Origin: Candidatus Rifleibacteriota bacterium
Lineage (GTDB): Bacteria; Riflebacteria; Ozemobacteria; Ozemobacterales; Ozemobacteraceae
NCBI GenBank assembly: GCA_022704885.1
Contig: JAKJFO010000031.1
Span: 10,335 to 30,523, forward strand
Direction: 5' to 3'
Length of the DNA stretch: 20,189 nucleotides
The notes beneath the pieces were generated by a model. It searched no databases. It was not told the origin of the DNA and worked only from the letters and a program-made list of their open reading frames with translations. Position 1 is the stretch's first letter, and every line of letters starts with the position of its first letter. Made by a program: the position numbers and the translations under genes. This document shows, piece after piece, positions 1,900-17,219 of this stretch.

Positions 1900-2218
1900 A
1901 ACTATATTTGTTGCAGTCAGACCAATTACCCATAACAAGACCATAATGAGCAATACAGTGTGAAAAGATTTTACATGTGCCAAATTTTCATCTAACAACT
2001 GCTGTGAATTTAGCACACAATTTGAGCTTGATTGTGAAATAAATCTCAATATGCGGTTGATAAAACATCCGGATGGCTTTGAATTGGCCTCTTCTGTTTG
2101 CTTTAACGCGGTCTGGATGCTACAAGTCATTATATTGTCAGGTGTGTGAAAAAAATACACTTGTGTAATTTTTTTACTACCTTTATTGCTAAAACAGGCT
2201 AAAATTCAATCTGAAAAG
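1900..2218. other. Gene-poor stretch upstream of the sigma-54 promoter, with inverted repeats
   Basis: I see no convincing gene here. A 99-codon minus-strand frame (2160-1861) is AT-rich, resembles nothing I know, and overlaps the promoter of the radical SAM gene. Two inverted repeats are visible: CACAAT/ATTGTG with a 9-bp spacer (2016-2036) and TACAC-TT-GTGTA (about 2155-2166). They lie roughly 80 to 230 bp upstream of the predicted sigma-54 start, where enhancer-binding activators usually bind. Their role as activator sites is inference. Confidence 0.3.
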
Positions 2219-2235
2219 TTGGCACGGAACTTGCT
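2219..2235 (+). promoter_or_regulatory. Sigma-54 (RpoN) promoter, -24/-12 type
   Basis: The sequence TTGGCACGGAACTTGCT matches the sigma-54 consensus (YTGGCACG-N4-TTGCW) at essentially every position. The invariant GG is at 2221-2222 and the GC at 2233-2234, ten bases apart. The expected transcription start is near 2246, reading rightward. No gene starts close downstream on this strand; an intrinsic terminator lies about 300 nt away. Sigma-54 promoters need an AAA+ enhancer-binding activator; none is encoded in this window. Confidence 0.8.
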
Positions 2236-2245
2236 CTATTATTTA

Positions 2246-2545
2246 CGTAGTTCTTTGAAAAATGAAAAAGCGTTTTCCGGGTCGTTTAAAGTATATTCAT
2301 ACTTTGTAAAAGCACGGTCTCTCCATGGAAACACAACGGTCACTCTCTAAGAAACAGCACAATCAACTTCTGAACACTCAAACAGCCACATCATCACATA
2401 TAACTCATTCAACACCACAGATAATGAATTGCTACAGCATGACCCGGAAAGCTTTTTATAATTTTGTCATCCGACGATGACTCAACAATCCTCTCAAAAG
2501 ATCCTCTCACTTTGTCCCCGGCTTTTTGAACCGGGGATTTTTTTT
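2246..2545 (+). ncRNA. Candidate sigma-54-dependent small RNA (about 300 nt)
   Basis: The unit is defined by the sigma-54 promoter (2219-2235) and an intrinsic terminator (2515-2545) on the same strand. Inside it I see two perfect hairpins, AAAGTAT-attc-ATACTTT (2288-2305) and GTCATC-cgac-GATGAC (2466-2481), then a duplicated 9-mer ATCCTCTCA (2488-2496 and 2501-2509) in the unstructured stretch before the terminator. Only tiny reading frames exist: 15 codons from 2262 and 51 codons at 2325-2480. Neither has a Shine-Dalgarno site or a recognisable product, although the 51-codon frame could be a real small protein. Ends are estimated from promoter and terminator. Function unknown. Confidence 0.5.
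2515..2545 (+). terminator. Intrinsic terminator of the sigma-54 unit
   Basis: A 7-bp G/C-rich stem TCCCCGG / CCGGGGA (2515-2521 with 2531-2537) has a 9-nt loop and is followed at once by eight T's (2538-2545). It is oriented for plus-strand transcripts. The minus side lacks a T-run, so it would not stop the rseC transcript equally well. Confidence 0.85.
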
Positions 2546-2595: not shown

Positions 2596-3072
2596 TTATT
2601 TCTGACTGTTTTCAGAATTATTTGATGTCGCGGCAGAATGTGGAAGGATCCCAACTACCTTGAGGCTCAATTTCCGGACTGGCCGTGTTCTGGCAATTAT
2701 TGCAACCAGGCCGAAGGCCAGAGCCATGCCCACAAAACCTGAGATCAGTCGCCAGAAATCGCTGATTGTATTTCCAATCATCTGGCAGAGCCATGGGGCG
2801 CCTGCCATGCCTGAAAGAAATCCTACGACAGGCAGGCCGAAGATCAGCAGGGCTGCTATTGTTCCTTCGCCCGGGTGTAAATCGAGAATTACTTCATCAC
2901 CAGGGTTGACCTTGAAGCCTTCGGTCATTGCCTGGATCTGTTTTTTAGCTGAGCGCTTTTCGCCATCGAGCAGACCGGTACAGGCATGGCACCCTTTGCA
3001 TTCCGGTCGCGGTTCTACTTCAACTGTGGCAAAGCCTTCTTCGACTGCGATAACTTTTCCCTGAAGACTCAT
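2596..3072 (-). CDS. rseC: RseC/MucC-like (SoxR-reducing system) membrane protein
   Basis: The 158-residue protein has the RseC layout. A short N-terminal beta-rich part carries clustered cysteines (PECKGCHACTG; Cys25, 28 and 31), followed by GDEVILDL, then two transmembrane segments at about 70-92 and 106-128 and a polar tail. In Enterobacteria RseC acts with the Rsx (Rnf-type) complex to keep SoxR reduced; in many anaerobes it is found beside rnf genes. Here it lies one gene beyond the rnf-plsY operon on the same strand, so a role in assembling or serving Rnf is plausible. No soxR is visible. The ATG at 3072 is preceded by a modest GGATAA-like ribosome site. Family call good, role inferred. 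Confidence 0.75.
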   Translation of the reverse strand: MSLQGKVIAVEEGFATVEVEPRPECKGCHACTGLLDGEKRSAKKQIQAMTEGFKVNPGDEVILDLHPGEGTIAALLIFGLPVVGFLSGMAGAPWLCQMIGNTISDFWRLISGFVGMALAFGLVAIIARTRPVRKLSLKVVGILPHSAATSNNSENSQK

Positions 3073-14473: not shown

Positions 14474-17005
14474 TTATCTGTGCAGGTTGTCGAAGCGCTG
14501 CAATTGCTCTACCTGGCTTTTCAGGCTTTCGATTGTAGAGCTGTCACCATATTCGGAGAGCAATTCATCGATGCTGCTCATGGCCGCGGCATCTCCATCG
14601 AGTTCACCGCGCAGATGCTGCATTACAATTGGAGAAAGCTCTTCAAATCTGTCGGCGCGAATTTCTGCGTCGTCTTCGTTGTCGAGACCCGCAATATACT
14701 CAAGCACTTCGCGAATGTTCTTTTCTTTGCCAAGGCTGAGCCAGTGGATAACGTTGCGGTTGAACGGAACGGTATCGAGGTCGCCGGGGCTTGTATAGAA
14801 GTTATCCTGATAAAGAGCTTCACCGAAGCAGGCAATTCGACCAAGTCCGAGGTCTTCGGCAACAGCTACGGGTATTGGCAGCACGGGCGTGTGGCTGGCA
14901 TAAATGTATGCATCTCCAAGTGCGTCTGCATCAGAGTTGTAGGAGTCTTCGTCGCCGGTTGCGAGCAGAAACAGATTTTTGCTGGCTACCAGGCCTTTGC
15001 TGGTTGAATTGATAAATGTGCACGAATCTCTCAGCAGAATCTTTTTGACACTTCCAGTAATGGTTTCTGTCGGGAAATTCTTGATGAAAGGCCGGTATGG
15101 CGGGCCGATATTGTCGGTCGGATCGCATGCCTGGTCATCGTTGAAGCGGATCTTGCTGCCGACACCCTTGAGAACACTGTTGAACATGTCTGGATTCGAA
15201 AGATTGCGAAAGTCTGATTTGCCGAACATGATCAGTGATCCGCCGCCAGAAACGAATTTCTTAAGCGCGGTGATTTCTTCTTTTTTGAAGTCAAGCGTCG
15301 GATGCGGGATTGCGATTACGAATGCATCCTTGATCATTTCGTAGGTAATCGTTTTGGATATGCTGCGCAACTGTATGCCATAATGCTGGAACAGATCCAT
15401 TTTCATGCCGGCGAAGCGGCCGGTGAAGTAGTCTTTATTGCCATGTACACAGTCTACCAGCATGGTTTTGGCGTCGAGTATCACAATCGTTGAAGTAGTA
15501 TCGATTATGGCTGTACCCTTCTTGAGTACAGCGATGAGTTCAACTTCACCCAGCCAGTCGATCTGAGCCGGAAAAGCGGTCTGGGCAGTTTCGTCGGCAT
15601 TTAGTGAATCGAACTTGGTTTTGCCAATCAGATTGTCAGCGCTTATGGCTGAATGATAGACTTCGAGGGTTATCCCGGTGGCCGCAACAGCTGCCGGGTT
15701 TTTAACCGGTATGACAACCTTGAACGGGTGCTTCATATAGAGTTTGTCAAAGTTTACGCCGATGCTGACGATTTTGGGTAACGGATCTTCTGATCCGGCA
15801 GGAGTTGTCAGGGTGCTTTCAAACGTGATTACTTTGTCTGTCTCTCGCGGATCGCGGCTTTCGACTCTGAAATTGTAGGTCGAAGAAGGCTTGAGGCCGG
15901 TTAAGGTGACGGTATGTGTCTTTACCGCATGATCATATACTTTTGAATTGTTAAGACTGCTTTCTCCGTAAAACACCGCAGTTGTACCGGCTTTATTGGT
16001 TGTCCACTGGATAGTTGCCGAATTGGCTGTCAGAGATATGACTTTTGGTTTCTGGGCGAATTCTATGATACTGTTATCGGTGACAAATCTAACGGTTTTG
16101 CCATCAGTGAAGCTCTCGACGTGACCATCTTTGTCAGTTCTGAAAACCTTCATCTTGTGATATTCATAGATATCAAGGACTGTCTGAGTCGGGTGTCCGA
16201 AGGAATTGCCAGTGCCGGCGCTGATTACGCCATATTCAGGCACAACTACATCCATGAAAGAATGTGAAGAGGAAGTTTTGCTGCCATGGTGACCAGATTT
16301 GAGAACGGTGCTTTTCAGCTTGCTGCCATGCAGGGCGACCATGTCTGCTTCTGGTTTCTTTTCTGCATCTCCGGTCAGAAGGTAGCTTACCTGGCCGGCG
16401 GTAACCTTTATTACGATAGACATGTCATTCGGATTGATTTTCAGGTCATCCGGTAATTTGTTATCGGGGTCATCCCGGCGGGCGTCACAATATAGAACTT
16501 CAGCCTTGATTCCTTTGCCCCAGTTGAGAAGTTCGCCCATTACCGCCTTGCGATATGGAATATTGTTCTTGTTGATCAGGTCGCGCAGCTGCGCATATAT
16601 CAGGCCATCCTGTGGGCCGCGCTCGGGATCGCTGTTGTCGCGTTCTTCATCTGACGAAATTTCTGTGTCGTTAGAATAGACGAATTCGCCGAACGTAAAT
16701 TCTCTGAGCAGTTCGATGAATCCGCCAAAATGATCACGATGTGGATGCGTGATATAGGCATGATCGATATGCTTGATGCCTTCTTTTTTGAGATAGGGAA
16801 TGATATAACGCTGGGCGGCATTACGATTGTCGTCACCGGCGTCGATCATGATGGTTTTCTCTGCAGAGCGGATCAAAATACAATCGCCCTGATGTACATC
16901 GAGAAAGGTTACTCTGAGGAGGGGCGCTTCATTTGCATAAGCCGTTGTTGCAACACAAGCCAGCAGCAACATCAATACGGCTGCCTGCGCGATTCTATGT
17001 ATCAT
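14474..17005 (-). CDS. Secreted ComEC-like metallo-beta-lactamase fold protein with FN3-, CARDB- and DUF4350-like domains
   Basis: The frame is open to 17188, but the ATG at 17005 has an AAGGAG site nine bases upstream and yields a clean signal peptide (1-24, ending TTAYA). The 843-residue product begins with a ComEC/Rec2-type metallo-hydrolase (about 28-310): FLDVHQGDCILI, HPHRDHFGG (His87, His89, Asp91, His92), LLTGDAE (Asp213) and SGHHGSKTSSS. Next come an FN3-like domain (about 320-402; WTTNKAGTTAVFYG, LTGLKPSSTYNFRVES), a CARDB-like beta domain (about 408-510) and a DUF4350/GATase-like Rossmann domain (about 513-760; VSGGGSLIMFG near 585-595). A helical tail follows. The chemistry could be nuclease, phosphodiesterase or phosphorylcholine esterase; I cannot decide. 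It is monocistronic with its own promoter and terminator. Confidence 0.85.
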   Translation of the reverse strand: MIHRIAQAAVLMLLLACVATTAYANEAPLLRVTFLDVHQGDCILIRSAEKTIMIDAGDDNRNAAQRYIIPYLKKEGIKHIDHAYITHPHRDHFGGFIELLREFTFGEFVYSNDTEISSDEERDNSDPERGPQDGLIYAQLRDLINKNNIPYRKAVMGELLNWGKGIKAEVLYCDARRDDPDNKLPDDLKINPNDMSIVIKVTAGQVSYLLTGDAEKKPEADMVALHGSKLKSTVLKSGHHGSKTSSSHSFMDVVVPEYGVISAGTGNSFGHPTQTVLDIYEYHKMKVFRTDKDGHVESFTDGKTVRFVTDNSIIEFAQKPKVISLTANSATIQWTTNKAGTTAVFYGESSLNNSKVYDHAVKTHTVTLTGLKPSSTYNFRVESRDPRETDKVITFESTLTTPAGSEDPLPKIVSIGVNFDKLYMKHPFKVVIPVKNPAAVAATGITLEVYHSAISADNLIGKTKFDSLNADETAQTAFPAQIDWLGEVELIAVLKKGTAIIDTTSTIVILDAKTMLVDCVHGNKDYFTGRFAGMKMDLFQHYGIQLRSISKTITYEMIKDAFVIAIPHPTLDFKKEEITALKKFVSGGGSLIMFGKSDFRNLSNPDMFNSVLKGVGSKIRFNDDQACDPTDNIGPPYRPFIKNFPTETITGSVKKILLRDSCTFINSTSKGLVASKNLFLLATGDEDSYNSDADALGDAYIYASHTPVLPIPVAVAEDLGLGRIACFGEALYQDNFYTSPGDLDTVPFNRNVIHWLSLGKEKNIREVLEYIAGLDNEDDAEIRADRFEELSPIVMQHLRGELDGDAAAMSSIDELLSEYGDSSTIESLKSQVEQLQRFDNLHR

Positions 17006-17034
17006 ACTCTTATACTCCTTATACGCGCTGGATT

Positions 17035-17055
17035 CAGATTTAATAATAAAATCTG
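17035..17055. repeat. Inverted repeat in the leader of the secreted hydrolase gene
   Basis: CAGATTT and AAATCTG are perfect 7-bp arms separated by 7 A/T bases. The repeat lies about 8-28 bases downstream of the predicted transcription start (near 17063) and 30 bases before the start codon. It could be a repressor operator or an RNA hairpin in the 5' leader. The symmetry is seen; the role is inferred. Confidence 0.4.
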
Positions 17056-17069
17056 CACCACGTATAGAA

Positions 17070-17098
17070 ATTCTACTGAGATATATAGAATGTGTCAA
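17070..17098 (-). promoter_or_regulatory. Strong promoter of the secreted hydrolase gene
   Basis: On the minus strand a perfect TTGACA (17098-17093) is followed after exactly 17 bp by TAGAAT (17075-17070), five of six matches. The predicted start near 17063 gives a leader of about 58 nt. It is the best sigma-70 consensus match in the window. Confidence 0.75.
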
Positions 17099-17173
17099 TG
17101 CCTGGCATAACTTTTTTTGACAAATATTTAATACGAAAATTGCGATTATAAGTGGAATATCGAATGTTGATAG

Positions 17174-17219
17174 TAACAAAACTGCCACCGGCAGAGAGTT
17201 TGCTCTGTCGGTGGCAGTT
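17174..17219 (-). terminator. Intrinsic terminator after nrdJ
   Basis: A 17-bp stem (17180-17196 with 17203-17219) containing one G-T type mismatch and a 6-nt loop lies 19 bases after the nrdJ stop. On the minus strand TTTTG follows at once. It separates nrdJ from the secreted hydrolase gene, which has its own promoter just downstream. Confidence 0.8.

What the first reader, a model, noticed from the sequence alone, without database searches (positions are those of the whole stretch)
2219..2545. Isolated sigma-54 transcription unit encoding a probable structured small RNA
Seen: a near-perfect -24/-12 element at 2219-2235, two perfect hairpins (2288-2305, 2466-2481) and a strong terminator with eight T's at 2515-2545, all on the plus strand, with only 15- and 51-codon frames between and no Shine-Dalgarno site. 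Known: sigma-54 drives small regulatory RNAs such as Qrr in Vibrio and GlmY/GlmZ in enterics, often for nitrogen, envelope or quorum control. Inference: this is an undescribed activator-controlled small RNA of about 300 nt, or less likely a small-protein mRNA.
Basis: partly seen in the sequence, partly recalled or inferred. Interest (0 to 1): 0.75.

Follow-up and report, generated by a model that had tools for sequence, protein, structure and literature searches.

The report
Phylum-wide sigma-54 small RNA family
In an uncultured bacterial phylum, Riflebacteria, a 300-base non-coding RNA predicted to be made from a special activator-controlled promoter belongs to a conserved multi-copy family, and stripped-down copies of its key segment also sit in viral sequences, which suggests a control switch that viruses may copy.

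Summary
The window comes from Candidatus Riflebacteria. 2219-2545 is a non-coding, structured sigma-54 transcription unit and one member of an RNA family seen only in that phylum: 19 of 39 phylum genomes carry its core, 0 of 342 others searched. Nearly all members end in an almost invariant 26-nt module with two tandem UCCUCUC seeds, then a terminator; 27 of 31 places examined have a sigma-54 promoter match. (2) In two genomes a variant module follows that operon's last gene. (3) Most RNAs start with a boxA-like motif. (4) Four viral contigs with different hallmark genes carry the module alone before a terminator, three behind a good sigma-70-like promoter, as predicted 50-60-nt RNAs. Most likely it is an Hfq-linked trans-acting RNA pairing through its seeds; no target was found and expression is untested.

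The parts
2144..2160 (+). Upstream activator site (UAS): dyad containing GTG-N9-CAC, centred about 94 bp upstream of the predicted start
   Evidence: Sequence. GYG-N9-CAC is present upstream of 25 of 28 family members and 23 of 23 ptsN loci parsed, control 35 of 795 segments. 2138-2165 is 75-89% identical to the four aligned copies against 33-35% for the upstream flank.
2219..2235 (+). Sigma-54 promoter (-24/-12), TTGGCACGGAACTTGCT
   Evidence: 13/13 consensus positions; only exact hit in the window; conserved in L004, L001 and both L002 copies. RpoN core-binding domain found in 15 of 18 genomes searched.
2246..2545 (+). Predicted non-coding RNA, about 300 nt
   Evidence: Start inferred as 12 nt after the -12 C; end at the T-run. 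Coding frame not conserved. Expression not tested.
2249..2261 (+). boxA-like motif AGTTCTTTGAAAA at +4
   Evidence: A 16S-23S spacer motif of G021 (L241), picked by eye, is matched at 10/12 or more in 19 of 28 members, mostly starting at +4 to +6 (about +30 in the G010 and G017 copies); control 6 of 2641 segments.
2266..2283 (+). 5' strand of long-range helix P1
   Evidence: Pairs with 2441-2456; 16 of 16 pairs kept in 7 of 7 sequences, 14 never vary, one compensatory.
2288..2305 (+). Hairpin P2
   Evidence: 95.2% of cells paired over 7 sequences, one compensatory pair.
2306..2440 (+). Variable, C/A-rich, G-poor interior
   Evidence: 2313-2435 is 55-77% identical to the four aligned copies; length varies across the family.
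2441..2456 (+). 3' strand of long-range helix P1
2466..2481 (+). Hairpin P3
   Evidence: Paired in 7 of 7 class A sequences; class B members have GTCGCGTCCCCGCGCGAC instead; no such hairpin in the folds of G016 and G018.
2489..2514 (+). Core module TCCTCTCAAAAGATCCTCTCACTTTG with two tandem UCCUCUC seeds
   Evidence: 27 places in 19 of 39 phylum genomes with up to 3 mismatches, backward control 0; 21-nt core in 0 of 342 genomes outside the phylum; its first 20 nt exact in 4 IMG/VR contigs.
2515..2545 (+). Intrinsic terminator TCCCCGG-N9-CCGGGGA-T8
   Evidence: A stem-loop plus T-run follows the module in 28 of 28 rows of A3, with different stems in different members.

Best explanation
The locus is a gene for a sigma-54-dependent trans-acting regulatory RNA. 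Shown by sequence comparison: a conserved upstream dyad, a sigma-54 promoter, a boxA-like 5' end, a long-range helix enclosing a variable domain, a short hairpin, an almost invariant module with two tandem UCCUCUC seeds, and a terminator; two or three copies in several genomes; no conserved protein. Inferred: an NtrC-like response regulator, encoded beside the EIIA/RsbW-like/NDK operon that carries the same upstream sites, binds the dyads and with sigma-54 turns on both the operon and the RNAs; the boxA-like start lets polymerase read through the untranslated C-rich interior without Rho termination; the module, with Hfq at its U-tail, pairs with GA-rich (Shine-Dalgarno-like) mRNA sites and represses them. 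The 5' domains would set stability or exposure of the module. Phages that carry the module alone behind sigma-70-like promoters would make the same effector without the activator.
For: Conservation and non-coding status. Family and phylum restriction: 27 places, 19 of 39 genomes, backward control 0; 19 of 381 genomes; 0 of 342 outside the phylum. Sigma-54 promoters: 27 of 31 places at 11/13 or more, control 19 of 540. A site-plus-promoter pattern drawn from the RNA genes, searched over 39 genomes, gives 17 distinct places: 16 are RNA loci, as designed, and the only other one is the ptsN operon beside an activator gene. Upstream site: 25 of 28 RNA genes and 23 of 23 ptsN loci parsed, control 35 of 795. 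Variant module directly after that operon in G007 and G012. Hfq in 38 of 39 genomes, two hfq genes in 17 of 19 module carriers. boxA-like start: 19 of 28 against 6 of 2641. Helix pairs kept, two compensatory pairs. Four viral contigs with module plus terminator; sigma-70-like promoter of 10/12 in 3 of 4.
Against: No target was found. TGAGAGGA-N3..11-ATG is no commoner in 10 module carriers than in 10 non-carriers, and the best conserved candidate keeps its site in only 4 of 10 homologues, 2 of them exactly. No expression data. Covariation is thin: the count of pairs changed on both sides is reached by 142 of 500 shuffles and that of further pair types by 376. The activator is assigned by neighbourhood and shared sites, not by binding data; the ptsN promoter scores (9-12 of 13) are not above chance by themselves. 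Three copies (G002A2, G015, G023b) lack the dyad pattern. G023b has only the second seed intact. The pattern missed many RNA loci. The boxA yardstick was picked by eye. Viral hosts are unknown; the Mu-like transposase finds only weak or partial matches in 3 of 39 phylum genomes. The promoter in L209 (8/12) is at chance level.
Confidence: 0.6

Rival explanations
1. The RNA is a protein-binding decoy. The tandem UCCUCUC module titrates an RNA-binding protein, in the manner of CsrB or RsmZ, instead of pairing with mRNAs.
For: Near-invariance of both seeds and their spacing, no target enrichment, tandem gene copies, and a viral version that is just module plus terminator all suit a fixed ligand of a protein.
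Against: The module holds no GGA, the motif of CsrB/RsmZ (recalled), and the number of seeds is two in nearly all copies. No candidate protein is known. CsrA was not searched.
Confidence: 0.22
2. The module is not a trans regulator but a terminator-linked processing or attachment sequence. Phages would carry it as an attachment core or as a borrowed terminator.
For: In L209 the module lies next to an integrase gene, the usual place of attP (recalled), and its promoter match is weak. The copies precede a terminator.
Against: L208 is Mu-like (transposase, MuB-like and Gam-like proteins); L210 has it beside portal and head genes and L211 beside a terminase gene; no integrase among the proteins scanned, though only 3.9 of 42 kb and 11.7 of 22 kb of those two were held. 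Three of four have a 10/12 sigma-70-like promoter 36 nt before the module, control 10 of 9912 positions. An attachment site needs no dedicated promoter.
Confidence: 0.08
3. The main function lies in the boxA-like start: the RNA titrates NusB/NusE or tunes antitermination and rRNA synthesis.
For: boxA-like motif in most members; in G021 11 of 12 positions match the 16S-23S spacer motif of the same genome.
Against: The best conserved part is the 3' module. No boxA-like motif was seen by eye just upstream of the module in the two operon copies or in L209, L210 and L211. In rRNA, boxA acts in cis.
Confidence: 0.06
4. It is an mRNA for a small protein of 51 codons.
For: An ATG frame of 51 codons exists in the window, and 48 codons in L001.
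Against: In-frame stop at codon 9 in L004, no ATG at that place in the L002 copies, single-base indels in the interior.
Confidence: 0.02

Closest known systems
Qrr small RNAs of Vibrio (LuxO/sigma-54/Hfq)
   Same: Several related RNA genes, sigma-54 promoter, upstream sites for an NtrC-type response regulator, Hfq in the genome. Known facts from passages of PMC2680268 and the abstract and outline of PMC10162802.
   Different: No Qrr among the Rfam matches (that Rfam holds a Qrr model is recalled); boxA-like start; module also found after a protein operon and in viral contigs; the proposed activator also faces a ptsN operon. The activator scores 349 bits against the LuxO model cut-off of 800.
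GlmY/GlmZ with QseE-QseF (GlrR) in enterics
   Same: Sigma-54 sRNA activated by a response regulator encoded next to it, which also activates a protein gene (rpoE); QseF upstream site TGT-N12-ACA (passages of PMC6075780).
   Different: No GlmY/GlmZ among the Rfam matches (that Rfam holds them is recalled); site is GTG-N9-CAC; the proposed protein target is an EIIA/RsbW-like/NDK operon; no RapZ link tested. GlrR model 329 bits against cut-off 763.
LhrC1-5 of Listeria (LisRK)
   Same: Five-copy RNA that needs the LisRK two-component system, with redundant CU-rich sites that bind lapB mRNA and are predicted to block its Shine-Dalgarno sequence (passages of PMC4132741).
   Different: LhrC has UCCC in three sites and binds Hfq without needing it for lapB; no sigma-54 promoter was mentioned in the passages seen. 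Here two UCCUCUC copies and a sigma-54 promoter; target pairing not shown here.
AgvB-type phage sRNAs
   Same: A small phage RNA that interferes with a host sRNA circuit (passages of PMC12197685).
   Different: AgvB mimics the mRNA targets of a host sRNA; the viral copies here carry the host RNA's own seed in the same sense.
mmgR/suhB (RF00519) and Burkholderia anti-hemB (RF02837)
   Same: Sub-threshold covariance-model matches over module and terminator (18-27 and 21-24 bits).
   Different: Far below gathering scores (41 and 49.5); in the window alignment the anti-hemB match rests almost wholly on the terminator; treated as chance or convergence.

Membership tests
Sigma-54-dependent small RNA (general kind) | -24/-12 promoter | tested here: met
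   13/13 in the window; 27 of 31 places at 11/13 or more, control 19 of 540
Sigma-54-dependent small RNA (general kind) | Upstream activator site | tested here: met
   25 of 28 upstream regions, control 35 of 795
Sigma-54-dependent small RNA (general kind) | RpoN in the genome | tested here: met
   15 of 18 genomes searched; 10 of the 12 module carriers among them; the window's own genome is not held
Sigma-54-dependent small RNA (general kind) | Transcription observed and lost without RpoN | not testable with these tools
   No expression data
Qrr | Qrr covariance model | tested here: not met
   Not among the matches with E up to 2 for 2200-2570, nor at gathering score in the window
Qrr | LuxO as activator | tested here: not met
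   Candidate activator 349 bits, cut-off 800
GlmY/GlmZ | Rfam model of GlmY/GlmZ | tested here: not met
   Not among the matches
Hfq-dependent trans-acting sRNA | Hfq in the genome | tested here: met
   38 of 39 phylum genomes
Hfq-dependent trans-acting sRNA | Base-pairing with mRNAs | tested here: inconclusive
   No enrichment of TGAGAGGA-N-ATG; candidate site kept in 4 of 10 homologues
CsrB/RsmZ sponge | Repeated GGA motifs in hairpin loops | not tested
   The module holds no GGA, but GGA was not counted over the whole RNAs; definition recalled
boxA-antiterminated RNA | boxA near the 5' end matching the rRNA motif of the phylum | tested here: inconclusive
   19 of 28 at 10/12 or more, control 6 of 2641; but the yardstick is one spacer motif picked by eye, and an automatic pattern found no such motif in the three 16S leaders or spacers
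boxA-antiterminated RNA | NusB/NusE recruitment | not testable with these tools
   Needs binding or ChIP data

The most novel reading that the evidence does not exclude
Much of a bacterial phylum uses a portable 26-nt RNA effector, two UCCUCUC seeds plus a terminator, that one sigma-54 activator switches on in several formats (long structured RNAs and, in two genomes, the 3' end of its ptsN operon). Phages of different kinds have captured the bare effector behind constitutive promoters, and so carry the output of the host circuit as 50-60-nt mimic RNAs.
Probability: 0.42. Interest if true: 0.82.

Novelty: new variant of a known kind. Interest (0 to 1): 0.7.

Why it matters
It gives an uncultured phylum a regulatory RNA circuit with a likely activator, co-regulated operon, RNA chaperone and a precise effector sequence, all testable. 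The portable module, the boxA-like start on a sigma-54 RNA and the same-sense viral mini-copies are not features of Qrr, GlmY or LhrC in the passages seen here or as recalled. If the viral copies work, they show phages borrowing a host small RNA's seed itself, whereas AgvB imitates the targets of a host small RNA.

Tried and rejected
Rfam at gathering and relaxed thresholds: only sub-threshold matches, dismissed. Coding frame: rejected. Targets: counts of TGAGAGGA-N3..11-ATG gave no excess in carriers. I fetched 60 stretches at the listed places (of G020 only 1 of its 10 hits, of G010, G017 and G018 none); one search kept 36 proteins and paired four sets; two proteins, one from each of two sets, were scanned and are HATPase_c_2 and TPR proteins. 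The HATPase_c_2 candidate has TGAGAGGA in G004 and G002, TGAGGGGA in G006 and G001, a partial GAGAGG in G020 and G016, and no such site in the other 4 of 10 homologues seen. Duplex energies of the module with 24 start regions, some starts estimated, were unremarkable (best -12.0; background 5% level -13.4). The INPHARED phage and PLSDB plasmid collections gave no real match. The viral host test through the MuA-like transposase was inconclusive. A covariance model was not built. CsrA was not searched.

Full report
WHAT IS THERE. The window has no genome of its own in the collection. Its RnfB protein is 95% identical to that of Candidatus Rifleibacterium amylolyticum CH46 (L004), 91% to HGW-Riflebacteria-1 (L001) and 87% to another Riflebacteria MAG (L002), so it comes from Candidatus Riflebacteria. 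The unit lies in the gap before rseC (2596-3072, minus strand; PF04246), facing it tail to tail. Folding energy alone is only mildly unusual.

CONSERVATION. BLASTN finds the unit in the same place in L004 (87%), L001 (79%) and twice in tandem in L002 (78 and 76%). Against L004, L001, L002a and L002b the promoter is 80-100% identical, P1 strands 90-100%, P3 88-100%, module 97-100%, terminator 84-100%; the interior is 55-77%, the upstream flank 33-35% and the downstream flank 25-51%. The 51-codon frame is stopped at codon 9 in L004 and has no ATG there in L002; L001 keeps 48 codons. On seven class A sequences all 16 pairs of the long-range helix are kept in every sequence; 14 never vary and one has a compensatory A-U/G-C change; hairpin P2 has another. 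Covariation score and cells paired are reached by only 2 and 3 of 500 shuffles, but the count of pairs changed on both sides by 142 and of further pair types by 376. Other classes have different sequences that mostly fold into a similar enclosing helix; the shortest members (G018, G019, G022; 144-184 nt) have little of it (minimum-energy folds read by eye).

FAMILY. A BLASTN search of 95 relatives found matches in 20 genomes and 31 listed places, two of them pieces of one unit. The 26-nt module with up to 3 mismatches occurs at 27 places in 19 of 39 genomes of the phylum, none with the pattern read backwards. The 21-nt core with up to 1 mismatch occurs in 19 of 381 genomes, the same 19 of the phylum, so 0 of 342 outside. 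Exceptions inside the family: G007b and G012 have a variant module (below), G010b and G017b small changes, and G023b only the second seed. Of 31 places examined (window plus 30), 27 score 11 or more of 13 against the sigma-54 consensus and 15 score 13; of 540 control segments from the same loci 19 score 11 or more and 4 score 13 (neighbouring tandem copies were not excluded from the control). For G017b that script scored the neighbouring copy; its own promoter, read, also has 11 of 13. For G012 it did not land on the module. The four low scorers are G007b (9), G012 (10), G019 (10) and G023a (9). Alignment A3 has 28 rows; G007b, G012 and G023b were left out of it, though a terminator follows each of them by eye. 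Rfam has no match at gathering score for the window and only sub-threshold matches in 15 loci and in 2200-2570.

ACTIVATOR AND REGULON. The pattern GTGNNAAANNNNCAC, 45-75 bases, TGGCA-N6-TTGC, drawn from the RNA genes, was searched in 39 genomes: 18 hits at 17 distinct places, backward control 0. Sixteen are RNA loci, as designed (other RNA loci were missed), and the only further one lies before a ptsN-like gene in G002. There an NtrC/AtoC-like response regulator (REC, sigma-54 interaction domain, Fis-type HTH) ends just upstream, and an EIIA (PF00359), an RsbW-like ATPase and NDK follow. Close ptsN homologues (23 of the 24 loci taken up were parsed, L112 was not, and remoter paralogues were not examined) have GYG-N9-CAC in the 170 nt upstream in 23 of 23; RNA genes have it in the 160 nt before the promoter in 25 of 28 (not in G002A2, G015, G023b; G007b, G012 and G023a not counted); control segments, not limited to intergenic DNA, 35 of 795. 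The best -24/-12-like element before ptsN lies at the same distance, 52-69 nt, in 20 of 23 loci, but scores 9-12 of 13 and often has ATGC at -12; scores of 9-10 are common in control segments, so the constant distance is the support there. Regulator orthologues of 63-92% identity precede ptsN in the four further loci checked, L114-L117. In G007 and G012 a variant module (ATCCTCTCAAAGATCCTCTCATC) plus terminator directly follows the last gene of that operon. So RNA genes and operon form one predicted sigma-54 regulon, and the module can also be a 3'-UTR product. That the neighbouring regulator is the activator is inference.

boxA-LIKE START. The motif AGYTCTTTGAAAA or close to it sits at about +4 to +6 in most members and at about +30, behind a small hairpin, in the G010 and G017 copies. 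16S was found in 4 of 19 genomes. In the three complete ones an automatic pattern found no such motif in leader or spacer (one spacer is masked, one cut off); by eye I picked GATCTTTGACAA in the 16S-23S spacer of G021. It matches the RNA starts at 10 of 12 or more in 19 of 28 members and 9 or more in 23 of 28; 2,641 control segments give 6 and 74. In E. coli a boxA upstream of a long non-coding 5' region is reported to prevent Rho-dependent repression; the same paper doubts that this is its main role in rRNA (passages and section headings of PMC4807359). The C/A-rich, G-poor interior looks like a Rho loading region (recalled criterion), so protection from Rho is a reasonable inference, not shown.

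VIRAL COPIES. The exact 20-nt core is in 4 contigs of IMG/VR (two looser patterns added none, and the G007 variant none). Their hallmark genes differ: L208 has transposase, MuB-like and Gam-like proteins; L209 an integrase; L210 portal and major head proteins; L211 terminase and helicases (ten proteins scanned). In all four the module is followed by a GC hairpin and a T-rich run, read by eye. In L208, L210 and L211 a sigma-70-like promoter matching 10 of 12 starts 36 nt before it; 10 of 9,912 control positions reach 10 or more. L209 has 8 of 12, which 649 control positions also reach. Each would yield an RNA of roughly 50-60 nt starting at the module. For L209, next to an integrase gene, an attachment-site reading is also possible. 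Since the core was seen only in Riflebacteria among the 381 genomes searched, these viruses may infect that phylum, but a transposase search in the phylum was inconclusive.

MECHANISM. Hfq (PF17209) is in 38 of 39 phylum genomes, with two genes in 17 of 19 module carriers and in 5 of the other 20. A duplicated CU-rich stretch just before a U-tailed terminator is what one expects of an Hfq-linked RNA that blocks translation starts, like the redundant UCCC sites of LhrC, which however binds Hfq without needing it for lapB (passages of PMC4132741). I could not find the targets: TGAGAGGA-N3..11-ATG occurs 1-27 times in the 10 carriers and 2-22 times in the 10 non-carriers searched, and the best candidate is kept in only 4 of 10 homologues. 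A protein decoy therefore remains a serious rival.

KNOWN RELATIVES. It works like Qrr and GlmY in being a sigma-54 RNA under a response regulator and like LhrC in its seeds. It is not a member of Qrr or GlmY/GlmZ by Rfam or by the activator's model scores. In the held library 'Riflebacteria' with 'small RNA' gives 0 papers; 'Riflebacteria' alone gives 40, of which 15 were listed and none by its title concerns small RNAs; 'UCCUCUC' with 'sRNA' gives 26, of which 8 were listed and none by its title concerns a bacterial sRNA family.

Noticed in passing
L083 5407-11061 (G002:C128); L114-L117: Cluster Era, HEAT-repeat protein, NtrC-like regulator, then EIIA, RsbW-like ATPase and NDK in G002; the regulator-ptsN junction is kept in four further loci. 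No histidine kinase gene was seen among the L083 proteins scanned.
   Followed up: partly
39 phylum genomes: Two hfq genes in 17 of 19 module-carrying genomes and in 5 of the other 20; the second match is weaker and often in a longer open frame.
   Followed up: no
L209 3666-3685: In this viral contig the module lies beside an integrase gene, so host RNA genes might serve as phage attachment sites.
   Followed up: no
window 2596-3072 and class A loci: rseC homologues lie in 12 of 28 fetched RNA loci (two pairs share one gene; 3 at only 23-27% identity), a conserved neighbourhood.
   Followed up: partly
L245-L248: A HATPase_c_2 protein gene with TGAGAGGA or TGAGGGGA just before its start in four close species; possible target, weak.
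   Followed up: partly
L005 (SABV01000129.1): A record titled Erysipelotrichia bacterium encodes RnfB 85% identical to the window, and its genome (G005) carries a class B RNA; probably a misnamed Riflebacteria MAG.
   Followed up: no
window 14474-17188, minus strand: 904-aa frame with metallo-beta-lactamase and phosphatase N-terminal domains (fn3 and ABC_transp_aux below cut-off); function not studied.
   Followed up: no
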